Source: Gloeopeniophorella convolvens
Lineage: Eukaryota > Basidiomycota > Agaricomycetes > Russulales
Length of the DNA stretch: 64,000 bases
Direction: 5' to 3'
Assembly: GCA_022496205.1 (NCBI GenBank)
Contig: WTXD01000023.1
Coordinates: 186,001-250,000, forward strand
The position numbers were made by a program, and so were the translations under genes. The notes below the pieces were generated by a model, which was given only the letters and a program-made list of their open reading frames with translations, was not told where the DNA came from and ran no database searches. Shown here piece after piece: positions 49,658-55,550 of this stretch; position 1 is the stretch's first letter; every line of letters begins with the position of its first letter.

Positions 49658-49995
49658 ATGGGAGGTATGCTCTCCCCCTTATGTTCCTCTTGGACGCTCT
49701 CTTATCCTGTCCCCGCCCGCCTAGCCAAATCATCAACCGTACTCTGCGTCGCCGCCGCCGTCGGCATTCTTGTTGGTGTCGCGCTCGTGCCCGTCATTGC
49801 CCCTGTCGCCCTCAATGCGATCGGCTTTAGCGCCGCCGGACCCGTCGCCGGTATGCACACACACACTCCTCCCCGTGCAGCGTACTCACGAACGCACCAG
49901 GTTCTGTCGCGGCTGGCATACAGTCCAAAATCGGCTCCGTTGCGGCCTGCAGTGCGTTTGCGTTTGCCGCTGCAATGAGCGGCGCGTCTCTGTAA
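49658..49995 (+). CDS. ISG12/IFI27-like small hydrophobic protein, copy A
   Basis: Exons 49658..49664, 49725..49850 and 49901..49995 give 75 residues. The first coding exon is only seven nucleotides (ATG GGA G). The second encodes a hydrophobic helix (VLCVAAAVGILVGVALVPVI) ending AIGFSAAGPVAG; the third continues SVAAGIQSKIGSVAA and ends at MSGASL. The GFSAAG-x-x-AGS-x-AAG pattern fits the Ifi-6-16 domain known from interferon-induced membrane proteins and scattered fungal relatives. It lacks the C-terminal LFALAQSVAMGG helix of the other type, so it may be a shortened form. Intron phases are the same as in copies B to F. Likely a small membrane protein; function in fungi unknown. Confidence 0.8.
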
Positions 49996-50466
49996 CCGTT
50001 GTCGATTGCGTGGCCCGCTCGTCTGAATGTTATATTTCTTGAATGAATTGTCGGCCGCGTTTGATATTCGCGGACGCTCGTGCAGACGGGCCGTCACGCT
50101 ATGGCTTGCTGTCGAGCTTCGGTTGACATCGTAGCACGTGATTCGTCGTAGATAAGATTGTATTACTTTGATACAAATGTTCACTTCGCTTTCTACCTTC
50201 TAGGTACCACCACAACAATGTCTATGAGGCCGTTCTGGATATTAACACTTGCACCTGCTCCCGTTCGGAACAGCAAGGTGCCGTACAAATGGCAGTGCGA
50301 CACTACATAGGACGGCCGTACGCGCGCGCCAGAAGAAGCGCGGGTGTAGCGCACGACTCTGAGGAAGGCGCCCTAGCGCCCTGTTCCCAGGTTCGTCCCC
50401 TCGTGTCTTTTCTCTCTTGCCGTTCGCCACCTCCTCCTCTCTGACCGTCGCCCAGTAGCCTCACCA

Positions 50467-51435
50467 ATGGTCTGTGAGTATCACTTTTCATCCGCCGACT
50501 CGGCCAGCCCACTCATGCCTTCCTACGACAGTTATAGTCGTTCCCGTGGTCGGCCTCGTCCTCGCCTGTGGCGCCGTCCTCGCATCCGTCCTCGCCCCAG
50601 TCGTCCTCGGCGCTGTCGGTTTAGTGGGCAGCGAGCCTCACGTTTCACTCGTATAGCCAATCGGCTCATGCCCTCCTACGACAGCTATAATTGCTTCCGT
50701 GGTCGGCTTCGCCTGTGGCACCGTCCTCACATCCGTCTTCGCCCCAGTCGTCCTCGGCGTTGCCGGTTTGGTGGGCAGTAAGCCTACGTTTCACCCGTAT
50801 AGCCAACCGACTCATGCCCTCCTATGACAGCTATAATCGCCTCCGTGGTCGGCCTCGCCTGTGGCACCATCCTCACATCTGTCCTCGGCGTTGTTGGTTT
50901 AATGAGCAGTAAGCCTCACGCTTCACCCGTATAGCCAACCGACCCATGCCCTCCTACGACAGCTATAACCGCTTCCGTGGTCGGCCTCGCCTGCGGCACC
51001 GTCCTCACATCCGTCCTCACGTCCGTCCTCGGCGTTGTCGGTTTAATGGGCAGTAAGCCTCACGTTTCACCCGTATAGCCGATCCACTCATGCCCTCCTA
51101 CGACAGCTATAATCGCTTCCGTGGTCAGCCTCGCCTGTGGCACCGTCCTCGGCGTCGTCGGTTTCGGCGTAGCCGGTCCCGTTGCAGGTCTGTCCATCTT
51201 CCCTATGCCCACCTTACGGACTGTGCGAACGCGCCACACAGGGTCCATCGCCGCCGGCATGCAGGCTCGCATCGGAAACGTGGCTGCCGGCAGCCTCTTT
51301 GCACTTGCCCAGAGCGTCGCAATGGGCGGGGACGTGCCCGCTGCCATCACGGCGCTCGGCGCTGGGGGAGCCGTCACCAAAACCCGAGCTTTCCTGCGGA
51401 GCCTTGCCGGGATTCCGGCTATCACTGGGGCCTGA
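50467..51435 (+). CDS. ISG12/IFI27-like protein with five amplified helix exons, copy B
   Basis: Exons 50467..50473, 50532..50630, 50685..50777, 50831..50908, 50963..51052, 51107..51187 and 51242..51435 give 213 residues if all are used. Exons 2-6 are tandem homologues, each starting at a CTACGACAG-type acceptor (once CTATGACAG) and encoding IIASVVGLACGTVL-like helices. The first four end in a V/L-G-L-V/M-G stretch. Exon lengths 99, 93, 78, 90 and 81 are all multiples of three and lie between phase-1 introns, so any can be skipped without frame change. Only the last cassette ends in AGPVAG and joins the single C-terminal exon (SIAAGMQARIGNVAAGSLFALAQSV). The first cassette has a GC donor (GCGAGC); the next three have GTAAGC. 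Gene E shows the ancestral state, with one such exon. Confidence 0.75.
50631..51106 (+). repeat. Tandem repeat of helix exon plus intron
   Basis: The unit is intron (about 54 bp, with TTTCACCCGTATAGCC and ATGCCCTCCTAC) plus helix exon. Starts of successive exons lie at 50685, 50831, 50963 and 51107, so the unit is about 132-146 bp and the copies are highly similar. The end of an exon plus its donor (ATGGGCA then GTAAGC) resembles the 7-nt first exon of gene E with its donor, which suggests the unit arose by duplicating first exon, intron and helix exon together. Confidence 0.85.
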
Positions 51436-52734
51436 CTTGCCCGATATGTAGCTGTAGTCGTCGATGGCAACCCCCATGTGGCGTTGCCAATGTCATCGGG
51501 TTCGTGGTGCAACCTTGTGAGATTGGGTTGGGAGTCGGCTGAGGAACTGCAAGGGCCTGGGGCGGCTTGTGGTCTCAGTCCAGATACACGTGGACAGGTA
51601 TGGTAGCAAGTGCAAGTCAATTGGTACCGAGTACATGAAAATGCAGTAAACTTGAACAAGTGGAACACACTGGTGCGCGGCAAGGGCGCCGGCGTGCAGA
51701 GGGAGGGACGCCGCCGGCCAGAGAATCGAATTAGGAATTGCACATGAATCTCGGCAGACCCTCGAGCGCTGGGTGGTTGATGGTGCGTGCCGTTCACAAA
51801 GTGTCTTTCTGCTTCCCAGGGTGCTGACTCGGTGCATCGACCAGCGATTTGCATGGGCCTACTGATGGGCAAGTTCACGGGGAACGACGCGGTCGCGGCG
51901 GCGATCATGCTGACAGAAACTCGGGCGGAGGGCGGCGAGGAAGGGGCGATTGAGGCTGCCATGTGATGGCTGCACACCGTAGGGGCGTGCGGGGCATTAC
52001 CATCTCTGTACAGTATATGGGCTACTATAATCTTCAATATAATTAATACTGCATACAATACCTGCCAGAGATTATAGCCACGAATTTTTACAATCGCTTA
52101 GATAGGCACGGAATGCACCATGGCCTGGCGTCCCTTGTGACCATTGCGGGACTTGTGCCCAGGGCCATGACAGAATTCGAAGGCAAATACGCAACTTCGA
52201 TACACGCTCGCGTCGAGGCTTAGTTCGTTGAAGATTCCCAGCGGCGGACGATTGGGACCTACTTATTGGGACGGACGTTGGAATGGGGTGCGCGAGATAA
52301 GATGGCGGGGATCCGGGCAGGCGAGGCGGAAGTCACGGGATCGTAGTATAGTGATCATGATTGCGGCAATGCAACAGGTTGGTAACGGGCCAAGCGCCAC
52401 ACCTTCTCGCGGAAACCAAGTACGCCAGCAGACGCCAGCGGACGGCTTCACCGTCTTCAACGTCCGGACGTCCAGACCCCGGGACAGGGAGCCGGGCTTG
52501 CACCCGCTCCAGTTTGGGACAACGAAGCACCTTGTCTCCTAAAGCCGGCCTTAGTAACAGAAGACAGTCGTTCCGTCGAAGCACCATACATGGTGCTGGC
52601 AGTGCGATACCAAGGTATGCTTCATCATTCCAGTATAGACACCCAAAGAAATCGGAGTGCAACATAGTCTTTGTAACAGATTGACCAAGTCAAAGCCGCA
52701 CAGCCGTTCACATGGACCCTCTTACACGCAGTCA
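51436..52734. other. Gene-poor interval within the ISG12-like array
   Basis: About 1.3 kb between B and C. A short plus-strand frame near 51855-51966 encodes GLLMGKFTGNDAVAAAIM, but I cannot place it in a gene. The minus-strand 332-codon frame at 52058-51060 is a shadow of gene B. Confidence 0.45.
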
Positions 52735-52830: not shown

Positions 52831-53556
52831 ATGGGAGGTACGCCCTCAACCTTCTGCTTCCCTTGGACGCTCTCTCATCCTGTCCTACCTGCCCAGCCAC
52901 ATTCTCAATCGTACTCTGCATCGCCGCCGTCGGCGTCGTGGTCGCCGTTGTTATCGCCCTGGCGTATGTCTTCGCACTTGCCGCCCTCGGTGTGATCGGT
53001 TTCAGCGTCGCTGGACCCGTCGCCGGTACGCATACACGCACCTCCGAGCTACGCGGCACACACTCACAACGCACCAGGTTCCATCGCGGCAGCCATACAG
53101 TCGTGCATTTGCTCTGTTGCGGCGGGTAGTGCATTCGCTGCCGCGCAGAGCTTTGCGATGGGTGGCGCAGTGCCCGCGGCCGTCTTGGCGATTGGCGGGC
53201 TGATCATGATGGGGGGTTGCCTGTGGAACCGCTTGCGCCGTGTCTCCGTAAAGGTTGCCACTCGGATGCGGATGTACTGTCGTACTTATTTTTCTTGGAT
53301 GAATCAACAGCTGCGTTTGATGCAGATGCTCTCGGACGAGGCTCGCAGCTGTCCGGGTGCTGGCTTGCACCTCAGGCTCCCGTTCTGGACAACGAATCAC
53401 CATACAGGGTATTGGCAGCCTGTGCGATACCAAGGTGTGTCATGTCTTGCGGATAACCCCAGTATATTGACATCCAAGGAAACTGATGCTACAACATATA
53501 TAGTCTCCGTAACAGATCGGCTAAGCAAAGACGCCCAGTCGTTCAGTGTGACATAG
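52831..53556 (+). CDS. ISG12/IFI27-like protein with extended C-terminus, copy C
   Basis: Exons 52831..52837, 52897..53025 and 53078..53556 give 204 residues. Seven-nucleotide first exon (ATG GGA G), helix exon ending VIGFSVAGPVAG, third exon SIAAAIQSCICSVAAGSAFAAAQSFAMGGAVPAAVLAIGG. In the relatives translation stops around here; in this copy the frame stays open for roughly 110 more codons. The extra part corresponds to sequence that lies in the 3' flanks of genes D and E (for example TGGATGAATCAACAGCTGCG here against TTGAATGAATTGTCGGCTGC in D). Stop loss is the simplest explanation; an unseen intron is another. The N-terminal 100 residues are well supported, the tail less so. Confidence 0.7.
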
Positions 53557-53683: not shown

Positions 53684-53997
53684 ATGGGAGGTACGCTCCC
53701 TACCTTCTGCTCCCCTTGGGCGTTCTCTCATCCTTTCCTGCTCGCCCAACCAGATTCTCAGTCGTAGCTTGCATCGCAATCATTGCTGCTGCCCTCGTGC
53801 CAGTCATCGCGCCGCTCACCCTCAATGCGATCGGCTTCAGCGCTGCTGGGCCCGTCGCCGGTATGCACACACACTCGTCCCCGTGCAGCGTACCCACGAG
53901 TGCACTAGGTTCTGTCGCGGCTGGCATACAGTCCAAAATCGGCTCTGTTGCGGTCGGTAGTGCGTTTGCCGCCGCAATGGGCGGCGCGTCTCTGTAA
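53684..53997 (+). CDS. ISG12/IFI27-like small hydrophobic protein, copy D
   Basis: Exons 53684..53690, 53762..53860 and 53909..53997 give 64 residues, the shortest copy. First exon ATG GGA G; helix exon VACIAIIAAALVPVIAPL leading to NAIGFSAAGPVAG; third exon SVAAGIQSKIGSVAVGSAFAA ending GGASL. The acceptor has moved downstream: the site homologous to that of copy C would run into TAG in the required phase, whereas TTCTCAG at 53755-53761 restores the frame. Its 3' flank is very similar to that of copy A, and gene E follows as gene B follows A, so A+B and D+E are duplicates of one module. Confidence 0.75.
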
Positions 53998-54223
53998 CCG
54001 TTGTCGATTGTGTGGCCCGCCCGTCTGAATGTTATATTTCTTGAATGAATTGTCGGCTGCGTTTGATATTCTCGAACGCTCGTGCAGCCGGGCCGCGCCA
54101 TGGCTTGCACCTGCTCCCGCTCAGGACAACGAGGTGCCGTACAAATGGCAGTGTGTAGGATGGCTGTACGTGCGCCAGAAGAAGCGCGGGTCCGCGCACG
54201 ACCGAGTCGGCAGGCGCTCTAGA

Positions 54224-54321: not shown

Positions 54322-54727
54322 ATGGGCAGTGAGTATCAGGTTTCATCCGTCGACTCAGCCAGCCGACTCATGCCTTCCTACGACAGTTATAATCGCTTCC
54401 GTGGTCGGCCTCGCCTGTGGCACCGTCCTCACACCTGTCCTCGCCCCAGTCGCCCTCGGCATCATCGGTTTTAGCGCGGCCGGTCCCGTTGCAGGTCCGT
54501 CCATATTCCCTATACCCTCCTCACGGACTGTGCGAGCGTGCCACACAGGGACCATCGCTGCCGGCATGCAGGCTGGCATTGGAAACGTGGCTGCCGGCAG
54601 CCTCTTTGCACTTGCCCAGAGCGTCGCAATGGGCGGGGGCGTGCCCGCCGCCGTCACGGCGCTCGGCGCCGTGACCACTGGCGCTGGGGGAGCCGCGGCA
54701 GCTGCAGTAGCCGCTATCATAATATGA
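54322..54727 (+). CDS. ISG12/IFI27-like small hydrophobic protein, copy E
   Basis: Exons 54322..54328, 54387..54494 and 54549..54727 give 97 residues. Clean three-exon form of the family: 7-nt exon ATG GGC A, a helix exon IIIASVVGLACGTVLTPVL that ends GIIGFSAAGPVAG, and a third exon TIAAGMQAGIGNVAAGSLFALAQSVAMGG followed by an alanine/glycine-rich helix. This is probably the ancestral type-2 gene from which B was built by exon amplification, since the amplified exons of B match its second exon. Likely two to three membrane-spanning or membrane-inserting helices. No signal peptide is distinguishable from the first helix. Confidence 0.82.
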
Positions 54728-55150: not shown

Positions 55151-55550
55151 ATGAATGGTGAGCCCCGCAAATTCCATGACGCCTCCCCTGTTTATTTCGC
55201 CACAGCTCAACGTACTGCAATCGCCTGCGTGGCCGGCGTCACCTGTGGCGCCGTCCTCACGCCCCTCCTCGCCCCAGTCATCCTGGGCATCGTCGGTTTC
55301 GGTGCAGCCGGCCCCGTTGCAGGTCCGTCCGCGTTCCTTACTACACTTGCCTCACATTGTGCGAGCTTTCCACGCAGGGACCATCGCTGCCGGCGTGCAG
55401 GCTGGCATTGGAAACGTGGCTGCCGGCAGTCTCTTTGCACTTGCTCAGAGCGTCGCAATGGGTGGCGGCGTGCCCGCCGCCATCACGGCGCTCGGCGCTG
55501 GCATTGCCGGCGCCGGCGCGGGAGCCGCGATAGGGGCTGTTGCCCCATGA
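55151..55550 (+). CDS. ISG12/IFI27-like small hydrophobic protein, copy F
   Basis: Exons 55151..55157, 55206..55322 and 55378..55550 give 98 residues. First exon ATG AAT G (7 nt), helix exon QRTAIACVAGVTCGAVLTPLL ending GIVGFGAAGPVAG, third exon TIAAGVQAGIGNVAAGSLFALAQSVAMGGGVPAAITALGAG and a glycine/alanine-rich end. Very close to copy E in the third exon, while the first intron and leader differ. ACATAAGG about 75 bp upstream may be its TATA element. It is the last gene of the array; tandem non-coding repeats follow. Confidence 0.82.

What the first reader, a model, noticed from the sequence alone, without database searches (positions are those of the whole stretch)
50467..51435. Exon amplification: five symmetric helix cassettes in gene B
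Exons 2 to 6 are tandem copies of one hydrophobic helix exon. All lie between phase-1 introns and have lengths divisible by three (99, 93, 78, 90, 81), so any subset can be spliced without frame loss. Only one C-terminal exon exists. The gene could make a five-helix protein or a set of isoforms by alternative or mutually exclusive splicing, which would be unusual for such a small fungal gene.
Basis: seen in the sequence. Interest (0 to 1): 0.85.

Follow-up and report, generated by a model that had tools for sequence, protein, structure and literature searches.

The report
Fungal gene with copied start-plus-helix block
In a wood-dwelling fungus, a small membrane-protein gene has had its first part, start codon included, copied four extra times in tandem, so it could encode a protein with five near-identical helices; the copies look young, and nothing seen here shows that they are used as interchangeable parts.

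Summary
The gene belongs to a local Ifi-6-16 (PF06140) cluster in Gloeopeniophorella convolvens. The single-helix neighbour E (54322-54727) shows the origin: each of exons 2-5 ends in a relic of the initiator exon (ATGGGCA or a variant) followed by a copy of intron 1, so the unit is start exon + intron 1 + truncated helix exon. The 'symmetric phase' is therefore inherited, since the same intron flanks exons 2-5 on both sides. Exon 6 is the parental exon and alone encodes the whole GFxxAGPVA motif, so exons 2-5 are poor substitutes for it. Intron 2 has a GC donor, intron 4 lacks the branch motif of its sister introns, and a TATA-like 12-nt stretch of E is absent upstream, though relatives show some of these gaps too. 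After amplification exons diverged about as fast as introns. Best reading: a young 5'-partial tandem duplication giving, if transcribed, an all-inclusive five-helix protein or intron-retained duds. No RNA evidence was available.

The parts
50467..50473 (+). gene B exon 1, initiator exon ATGGTCT
   Evidence: aligned with gene E exon 1 ATGGGCA
50474..50531 (+). intron 1, 58 nt, GT-AG, CTCAT 16 nt before AG
   Evidence: 5 differences in 58 nt from gene E intron 1
50532..50630 (+). exon 2, helix cassette 1 (99 nt); all 6 counted changes from the consensus are nonsynonymous; ends in relic GTGGGCA
50631..50684 (+). intron 2, 54 nt, GC donor (GCGAGC); retention gives an in-frame TAG
50685..50777 (+). 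exon 3, helix cassette 2 (93 nt); ends in relic GTGGGCA
50778..50830 (+). intron 3, 53 nt
50831..50908 (+). exon 4, helix cassette 3 (78 nt); ends in relic ATGAGCA at 50902-50908
50909..50962 (+). intron 4, 54 nt; CTCAT of the sister introns reads CCCAT here
50963..51052 (+). exon 5, helix cassette 4 (90 nt); ends in relic ATGGGCA at 51046-51052, the same seven bases as gene E exon 1
51053..51106 (+). intron 5, 54 nt
51107..51187 (+). exon 6, parental helix exon (81 nt), the only one with the full GFxxAGPVA
51188..51241 (+). intron 6, 54 nt, the family's ordinary second intron
51242..51435 (+). exon 7, C-terminal part of the Ifi-6-16 domain; its last ~58 nt match contig C382 and not genes E and F
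50207..50466 (+). upstream region of B; lacks a 12-nt stretch (GATAAAAGCAGC) present at the aligned place in gene E; the C335 paralogue also has a gap there
54322..54727 (+). gene E, single-cassette paralogue (exons 54322-54328, 54387-54494, 54549-54727), 97 aa, template for reading the duplication
55151..55550 (+). gene F, single-cassette paralogue, deposited as BC834DRAFT_970915 (P0024); the deposited model splices the second intron but reads through the 48-nt first intron proposed here

Best explanation
Gene B is a rearranged member of an Ifi-6-16 gene cluster. A tandem duplication joined the middle of the helix exon (after GGTTT) to the sequence just before the start codon of a second copy, in frame (GGT TTA ATG GGC A). 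The repeating unit became [ATGGGCA exon | intron 1 | truncated helix exon] and was multiplied to four extra units upstream of the parental exon 6. Exons 2-5 therefore lie between two copies of the same phase-1 intron, and any in-frame length keeps the frame. If transcribed, the six short introns (53-58 nt) are most likely removed one by one (intron definition), giving an all-inclusive protein of five first-helices plus the Ifi-6-16 core; failure to remove intron 2 (GC donor) or intron 4 (altered branch motif) would leave an in-frame stop. Shown: anatomy, origin of the junctions, paralogues, altered signals. Inferred: transcription, splicing outcome, membrane insertion, and that the amplification is close to neutral.
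For: The four internal junctions align with the start of gene E, with 0, 1, 0 and 0 of 5000 shuffles scoring as high; in local alignment the E start scores 15-20 and the alternative source (helix-exon tail + intron 2) 5.5-7.5, near the shuffle means of 5.8-6.1. Junctions at base level. E has the same exon 1, intron 1 and exon 2 in single copy. Weak constraint after amplification: exon changes per site 0.037-0.077 per copy (cassettes 3-6) against 0.051 in introns 2-5; S 8, N 8, ratio about 0.46, p about 0.10; cassette 2 has S 0, N 6. Altered signals: GC donor of intron 2, CCCAT in intron 4, 12 nt absent upstream. One multi-cassette locus among the 6 DNA matches in the assembly (a lower bound by the tool's own note).
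Against: The frame is intact through five cassettes; the exon length differences are all multiples of three while the two intron length changes (4 nt and 1 nt) are not, which hints at coding constraint, although slippage between in-frame GTCCTC repeats could do the same. Cassettes 3-6 show a non-significant deficit of nonsynonymous change, and pairwise ratios among them are 0.23-0.67. The altered signals are not decisive: intron 1 of gene F has no CTNAY motif at all, and the C335 paralogue also lacks the 12-nt stretch. The deposited model of F does not splice the corresponding first intron. No RNA, protein or strain comparison was available.
Confidence: 0.72

Rival explanations
1. Functional multi-helix protein: the cassettes were kept because a longer hydrophobic helical array (residues 1-156 have no charged residue, N or Q) is useful, for example as a larger membrane bundle or pore.
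For: Open frame, in-frame length changes, ACG kept in 5 of 5 cassettes; first D/E/K/R/H/N/Q at residue 157; one Armillaria relative (P0003) has a comparable run of helix segments before the core motif; ratio about 0.46 in cassettes 3-6.
Against: Exon and intron divergence are about equal after amplification and the ratio is not significantly below 1; cassette 2 has only nonsynonymous changes; splice signals are altered in two introns.
Confidence: 0.2
2. Isoform generator: cassettes are skipped in different combinations, or used mutually exclusively, to make proteins with one to five helices.
For: Lengths and phases permit any subset; introns 3-5 share GTAAGC donors and GACAG acceptors.
Against: Only exon 6 carries the full GFxxAGPVA, so exons 2-5 are poor replacements. 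Exon skipping is rare in coding regions of one studied mushroom (PMC5034255, passages) and comparatively low in fungi (PMC6142364, passages). Skipping one cassette means an intron of 185-211 nt in place of 53-58 nt (from the coordinates).
Confidence: 0.07
3. Decaying pseudogene: B no longer makes protein, and the repeat is a minisatellite-like expansion that has not yet gathered stops.
For: GC donor at intron 2, CCCAT in intron 4, absent 12-nt TATA-like stretch, replaced C-terminal tail; neighbour D appears broken too.
Against: No stop or frameshift in 213 codons. F's first intron and the C335 paralogue show comparable gaps in signals. B is missing from the proteins returned, but so is E, whose signals look intact, so absence says little.
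Confidence: 0.3
4. Nested starts: the relic ATGs in exons 4 and 5 act as initiators for shorter messages, the exon-5 ATG giving an ordinary 93-residue single-domain protein.
For: ATGGGCA at 51046 is identical to gene E exon 1 and is followed by a copy of intron 1; the predicted product has one helix cassette and the core.
Against: The sequence before each relic is helix-coding exon, not the leader seen before E's ATG; exons 2 and 3 have GTG there.
Confidence: 0.08

Closest known systems
Interferon-induced 6-16 family (PF06140; human IFI6 and IFI27/ISG12, recalled), fungal members
   Same: The product matches above the curated cut-off (36.6 against 29.1 bits, residues 124-195), and 30 fungal and metagenomic relatives share helix 1, GFxxAGPVAG and QAGIGNVAAGS as majority sequence.
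   Different: Four extra copies of helix 1 precede the domain; of 76 relatives in which the motif could be placed, 58 have one hydrophobic segment upstream, 9 none, 6 two, 3 three or more.
Tandem exon duplication as described in animal genes (recalled; listing only)
   Same: Adjacent exon copies between introns of one phase.
   Different: The breakpoint lies in exons and the unit includes the initiator exon, so each extra cassette ends in a former start codon or its GTG variant.
Mutually exclusive exons
   Same: Tandem homologous exons with compatible phase.
   Different: Exons 2-5 lack most of the motif that exon 6 carries, so they are not equivalent alternatives.

Membership tests
PF06140 Ifi-6-16 | profile match above the curated cut-off | tested here: met
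   36.6 bits (cut-off 29.1), residues 124-195 of the predicted 213-aa product
PF06140 Ifi-6-16 | each extra cassette is itself an Ifi-6-16 domain | tested here: not met
   a single matched stretch; the four extra cassettes are copies of helix 1 only
PF06140 Ifi-6-16 | helical fold of the family | tested here: inconclusive
   relative P0025 modelled as four helices, mean pLDDT 71.9, pTM 0.50; weak sequence link of the 30-member profile to 2loq_A, IFI27-like protein 1, E 0.0033. Gene B itself was not folded and no fold search was run.
tandem exon duplication | adjacent homologous exons with homologous flanking introns | tested here: met
tandem exon duplication | duplication breakpoints within introns | tested here: not met
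   the breakpoint joins the helix exon to the initiator exon
mutually exclusive exons | each copy can replace the other without loss of conserved protein core | tested here: not met
   exons 2-5 lack most of GFxxAGPVA (by sequence; no functional test)
mutually exclusive exons | transcripts contain one copy at a time | not testable with these tools

The most novel reading that the evidence does not exclude
A 5'-partial gene amplification that carries the start codon along turned a one-helix Ifi-6-16 gene into an expressed five-helix membrane protein, with relic start codons in exons 4 and 5 also serving as nested starts, so that one gene yields a ladder of proteins with different numbers of first-helices.
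Probability: 0.08. Interest if true: 0.7.

Novelty: new variant of a known kind. Interest (0 to 1): 0.36.

Why it matters
It is a clean example of how repeat-helix membrane proteins could arise in a fungus. Because a first intron sits right after a tiny start exon, tandem copying of the 5' end makes frame-neutral cassettes automatically, once the first fusion is in frame. Sequence alone can mistake this for an evolved splicing system. It also marks an Ifi-6-16 cluster in a fungus for study; that family is known mainly from animal interferon responses (recalled).

Tried and rejected
Cassettes as spread of introns alone: rejected, because exon and intron are copied together. Cassette 3' end derived from the helix-exon tail plus intron 2: rejected, local scores 5.5-7.5 lie near the shuffle means of 5.8-6.1 (no p-value computed for this). 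Selection shown by synonymous and nonsynonymous counts: not reached. Multi-cassette relatives by a protein search on residues 1-130: none at E <= 1 among 7996 scored candidates; the segment is of simple composition, so this says little. A second array in the genome: none among 6 DNA matches. Literature: eight searches, listings and starts of abstracts only; no listed title deals with fungal Ifi-6-16 genes or with tandem exon duplication in a fungus. Passages only were read in PMC5034255 and PMC6142364. Locus L018 (a weak match on contig C61, E 0.037) was fetched and not examined.

Dropped before counting: the split first codon, codons beyond alignment column 30 and gapped codons; 42 of 118 relatives without a placeable motif. 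The consensus was taken over six exons, gene E included.

Full report
Observation. The seven exons are at the coordinates given and join into one 213-codon frame. Exons 2-6 are 99, 93, 78, 90 and 81 nt, between phase-1 introns; the six introns are 58, 54, 53, 54, 54 and 54 nt. The tandem repeat is unambiguous. The five are not equal, though: exons 2-5 end GLVG, GLVG, GLMS and GLMG, while exon 6 runs on through GFGVAGPVA and is followed by the family's ordinary second intron.

Where it is. The window lies in a 36.7-Mb assembly of 404 contigs. Its contig is 422,830 bases long, and a deposited protein of Gloeopeniophorella convolvens from a contig of that length (P0024) is encoded at 55151-55550, so the organism is taken to be that Russulales species (lineage). 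The predicted product matches Ifi-6-16, PF06140, over residues 124-195 only. Related genes lie beside it on the same strand: E (54322-54727), F (55151-55550) and C (from 52831) were found by search; A (49658-49995) and D (from 53684) were recognised by reading the sequence. A scores 27.8 bits, just under the family cut-off of 29.1. Another gene is on contig C335.

Origin. Gene E is the single-cassette version: ATGGGCA, intron 1, one helix exon of 108 nt, intron 2, core exon. Laid beside it, each internal junction of B reads helix exon up to GGTTT, then (A/G)(A/G)TG(G/A)GCA, then a copy of intron 1 with a 4-nt deletion. Against E's start region 0, 1, 0 and 0 of 5000 mononucleotide shuffles score as high as the four junctions; against B's own diverged start the fractions are 0.0006, 0.014, 0.0008 and 0. 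The competing source, helix-exon tail plus intron 2, scores near the mean of shuffles. So the unit is the 5' end of the gene with its start codon, not a helix exon alone. Because a copy of intron 1 lies on both sides of exons 2-5, the 1-1 symmetry is inherited and needs no selection; only the first fusion had to be in frame.

History and constraint. Introns 2-5 share the 4-nt deletion and other changes, so one first unit was probably multiplied later. Their consensus differs from E's intron 1 at 11 of 54 sites, against 1 of 47 in the first part of the exon (p 0.005) or 6 of 81 over the comparable exon (p 0.034), so the exon had changed more slowly than the intron before the amplification; on E's own side the changes are 2 synonymous and 4 nonsynonymous, which shows no protein-level constraint. 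After amplification, exon copies 3-6 changed at 0.037-0.077 per site and introns 2-5 at 0.051. Cassettes 3-6 carry 8 synonymous and 8 nonsynonymous changes (ratio about 0.46, p about 0.10), cassette 2 carries 0 and 6. Pairwise ratios are 0.23-0.67 among cassettes 3-6 and 1.06-4.06 between cassette 2 and the others. The data do not show selection to keep the cassettes. Exon length changes are all multiples of three and the two intron length changes are not, which leans the other way, but in-frame GTCCTC repeats offer a mechanical reason.

Signals. Intron 2 begins GCGAGC. CTCAT stands 16 nt before the acceptor in introns 1, 2, 3 and 5 and in E's intron 1, but not in intron 4. This is no proof of failure: F's first intron has no CTNAY motif either, and the deposited model of F reads through that 48-nt intron. 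Retention of intron 2, 3, 4 or 5 brings an in-frame stop; introns 1 and 6 contain none in the entering frame. Upstream, B lacks 12 nt that in E read GATAAAAGCAGC; F has CATAAGGGCAA near there, and the C335 paralogue also has a gap. The last ~58 nt of the coding sequence and the following stretch match contig C382 (77% over 215 nt), so B's C-terminal tail differs from E's and F's.

What it would make. A model of relative P0025 has four helices, the first at residues 3-31, within the part that the helix exon would encode by alignment (mean pLDDT 71.9, moderate). Full inclusion would give five such helices, and residues 1-156 without a charged residue, N or Q. Replacing exon 6 by one of exons 2-5 removes most of GFxxAGPVA and turns the following glycine into arginine; of the seven named positions six are invariant or nearly so in 30 relatives, and the glycine is invariant. 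Mutually exclusive use is therefore unlikely. Exon skipping is 1% of coding-region events in Schizophyllum commune (PMC5034255, passages) and comparatively low in fungi (PMC6142364, passages). The likeliest outcome of transcription is full inclusion or intron retention. None of this was seen in RNA.

Comparison. Among 76 of 118 relatives with a placeable motif, 58 have one hydrophobic segment upstream, 9 none, 6 two and 3 three or more; of the three, only P0003 (Armillaria) has them in one unbroken run. The DNA search of the assembly found no second array among 6 matches. The two protein searches that returned relatives list F but neither B nor E from this contig (one search scored only the 7998 candidates sharing most words).

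Verdict. A real and well-described feature with a clear origin. It is ordinary as a mutational process, uncommon as a gene architecture, and without evidence that it is a splicing device.

Noticed in passing
53684-54000: Gene D, a paralogue of A, appears to have lost the acceptor of its first intron (CCCAA where C has CCCAG), and the next AG gives an early stop: probably a pseudogene, a sign of birth and death in the cluster.
   Followed up: partly
51377-51588: B's last coding bases and the following stretch match contig C382:71733-71947 at 77%: the tail and 3' region seem to have been exchanged for another sequence.
   Followed up: partly
52531-52577: A ~46-nt sequence matched at 84-96% at 21 other places in the assembly (rows with query about 1168-1220): a short dispersed repeat.
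   Followed up: no
51881-52154: A ~274-nt stretch with four other copies at 83-84% (two on contig C179) and a partial one at 78%: a dispersed element beside gene B.
   Followed up: no
50467-51240: Changes among cassettes are almost all transitions (introns 2-5: 10 to 1; exons B2-B6: 20 to 2), as cytosine deamination or a RIP-like process might leave.
   Followed up: no
52831-53556: Gene C's frame runs to 204 residues, well past the usual end of the domain: it may have lost the usual stop.
   Followed up: no
55158-55205: The deposited model of gene F (P0024) keeps this 48-nt stretch, read here as intron 1, as coding sequence.
   Followed up: no
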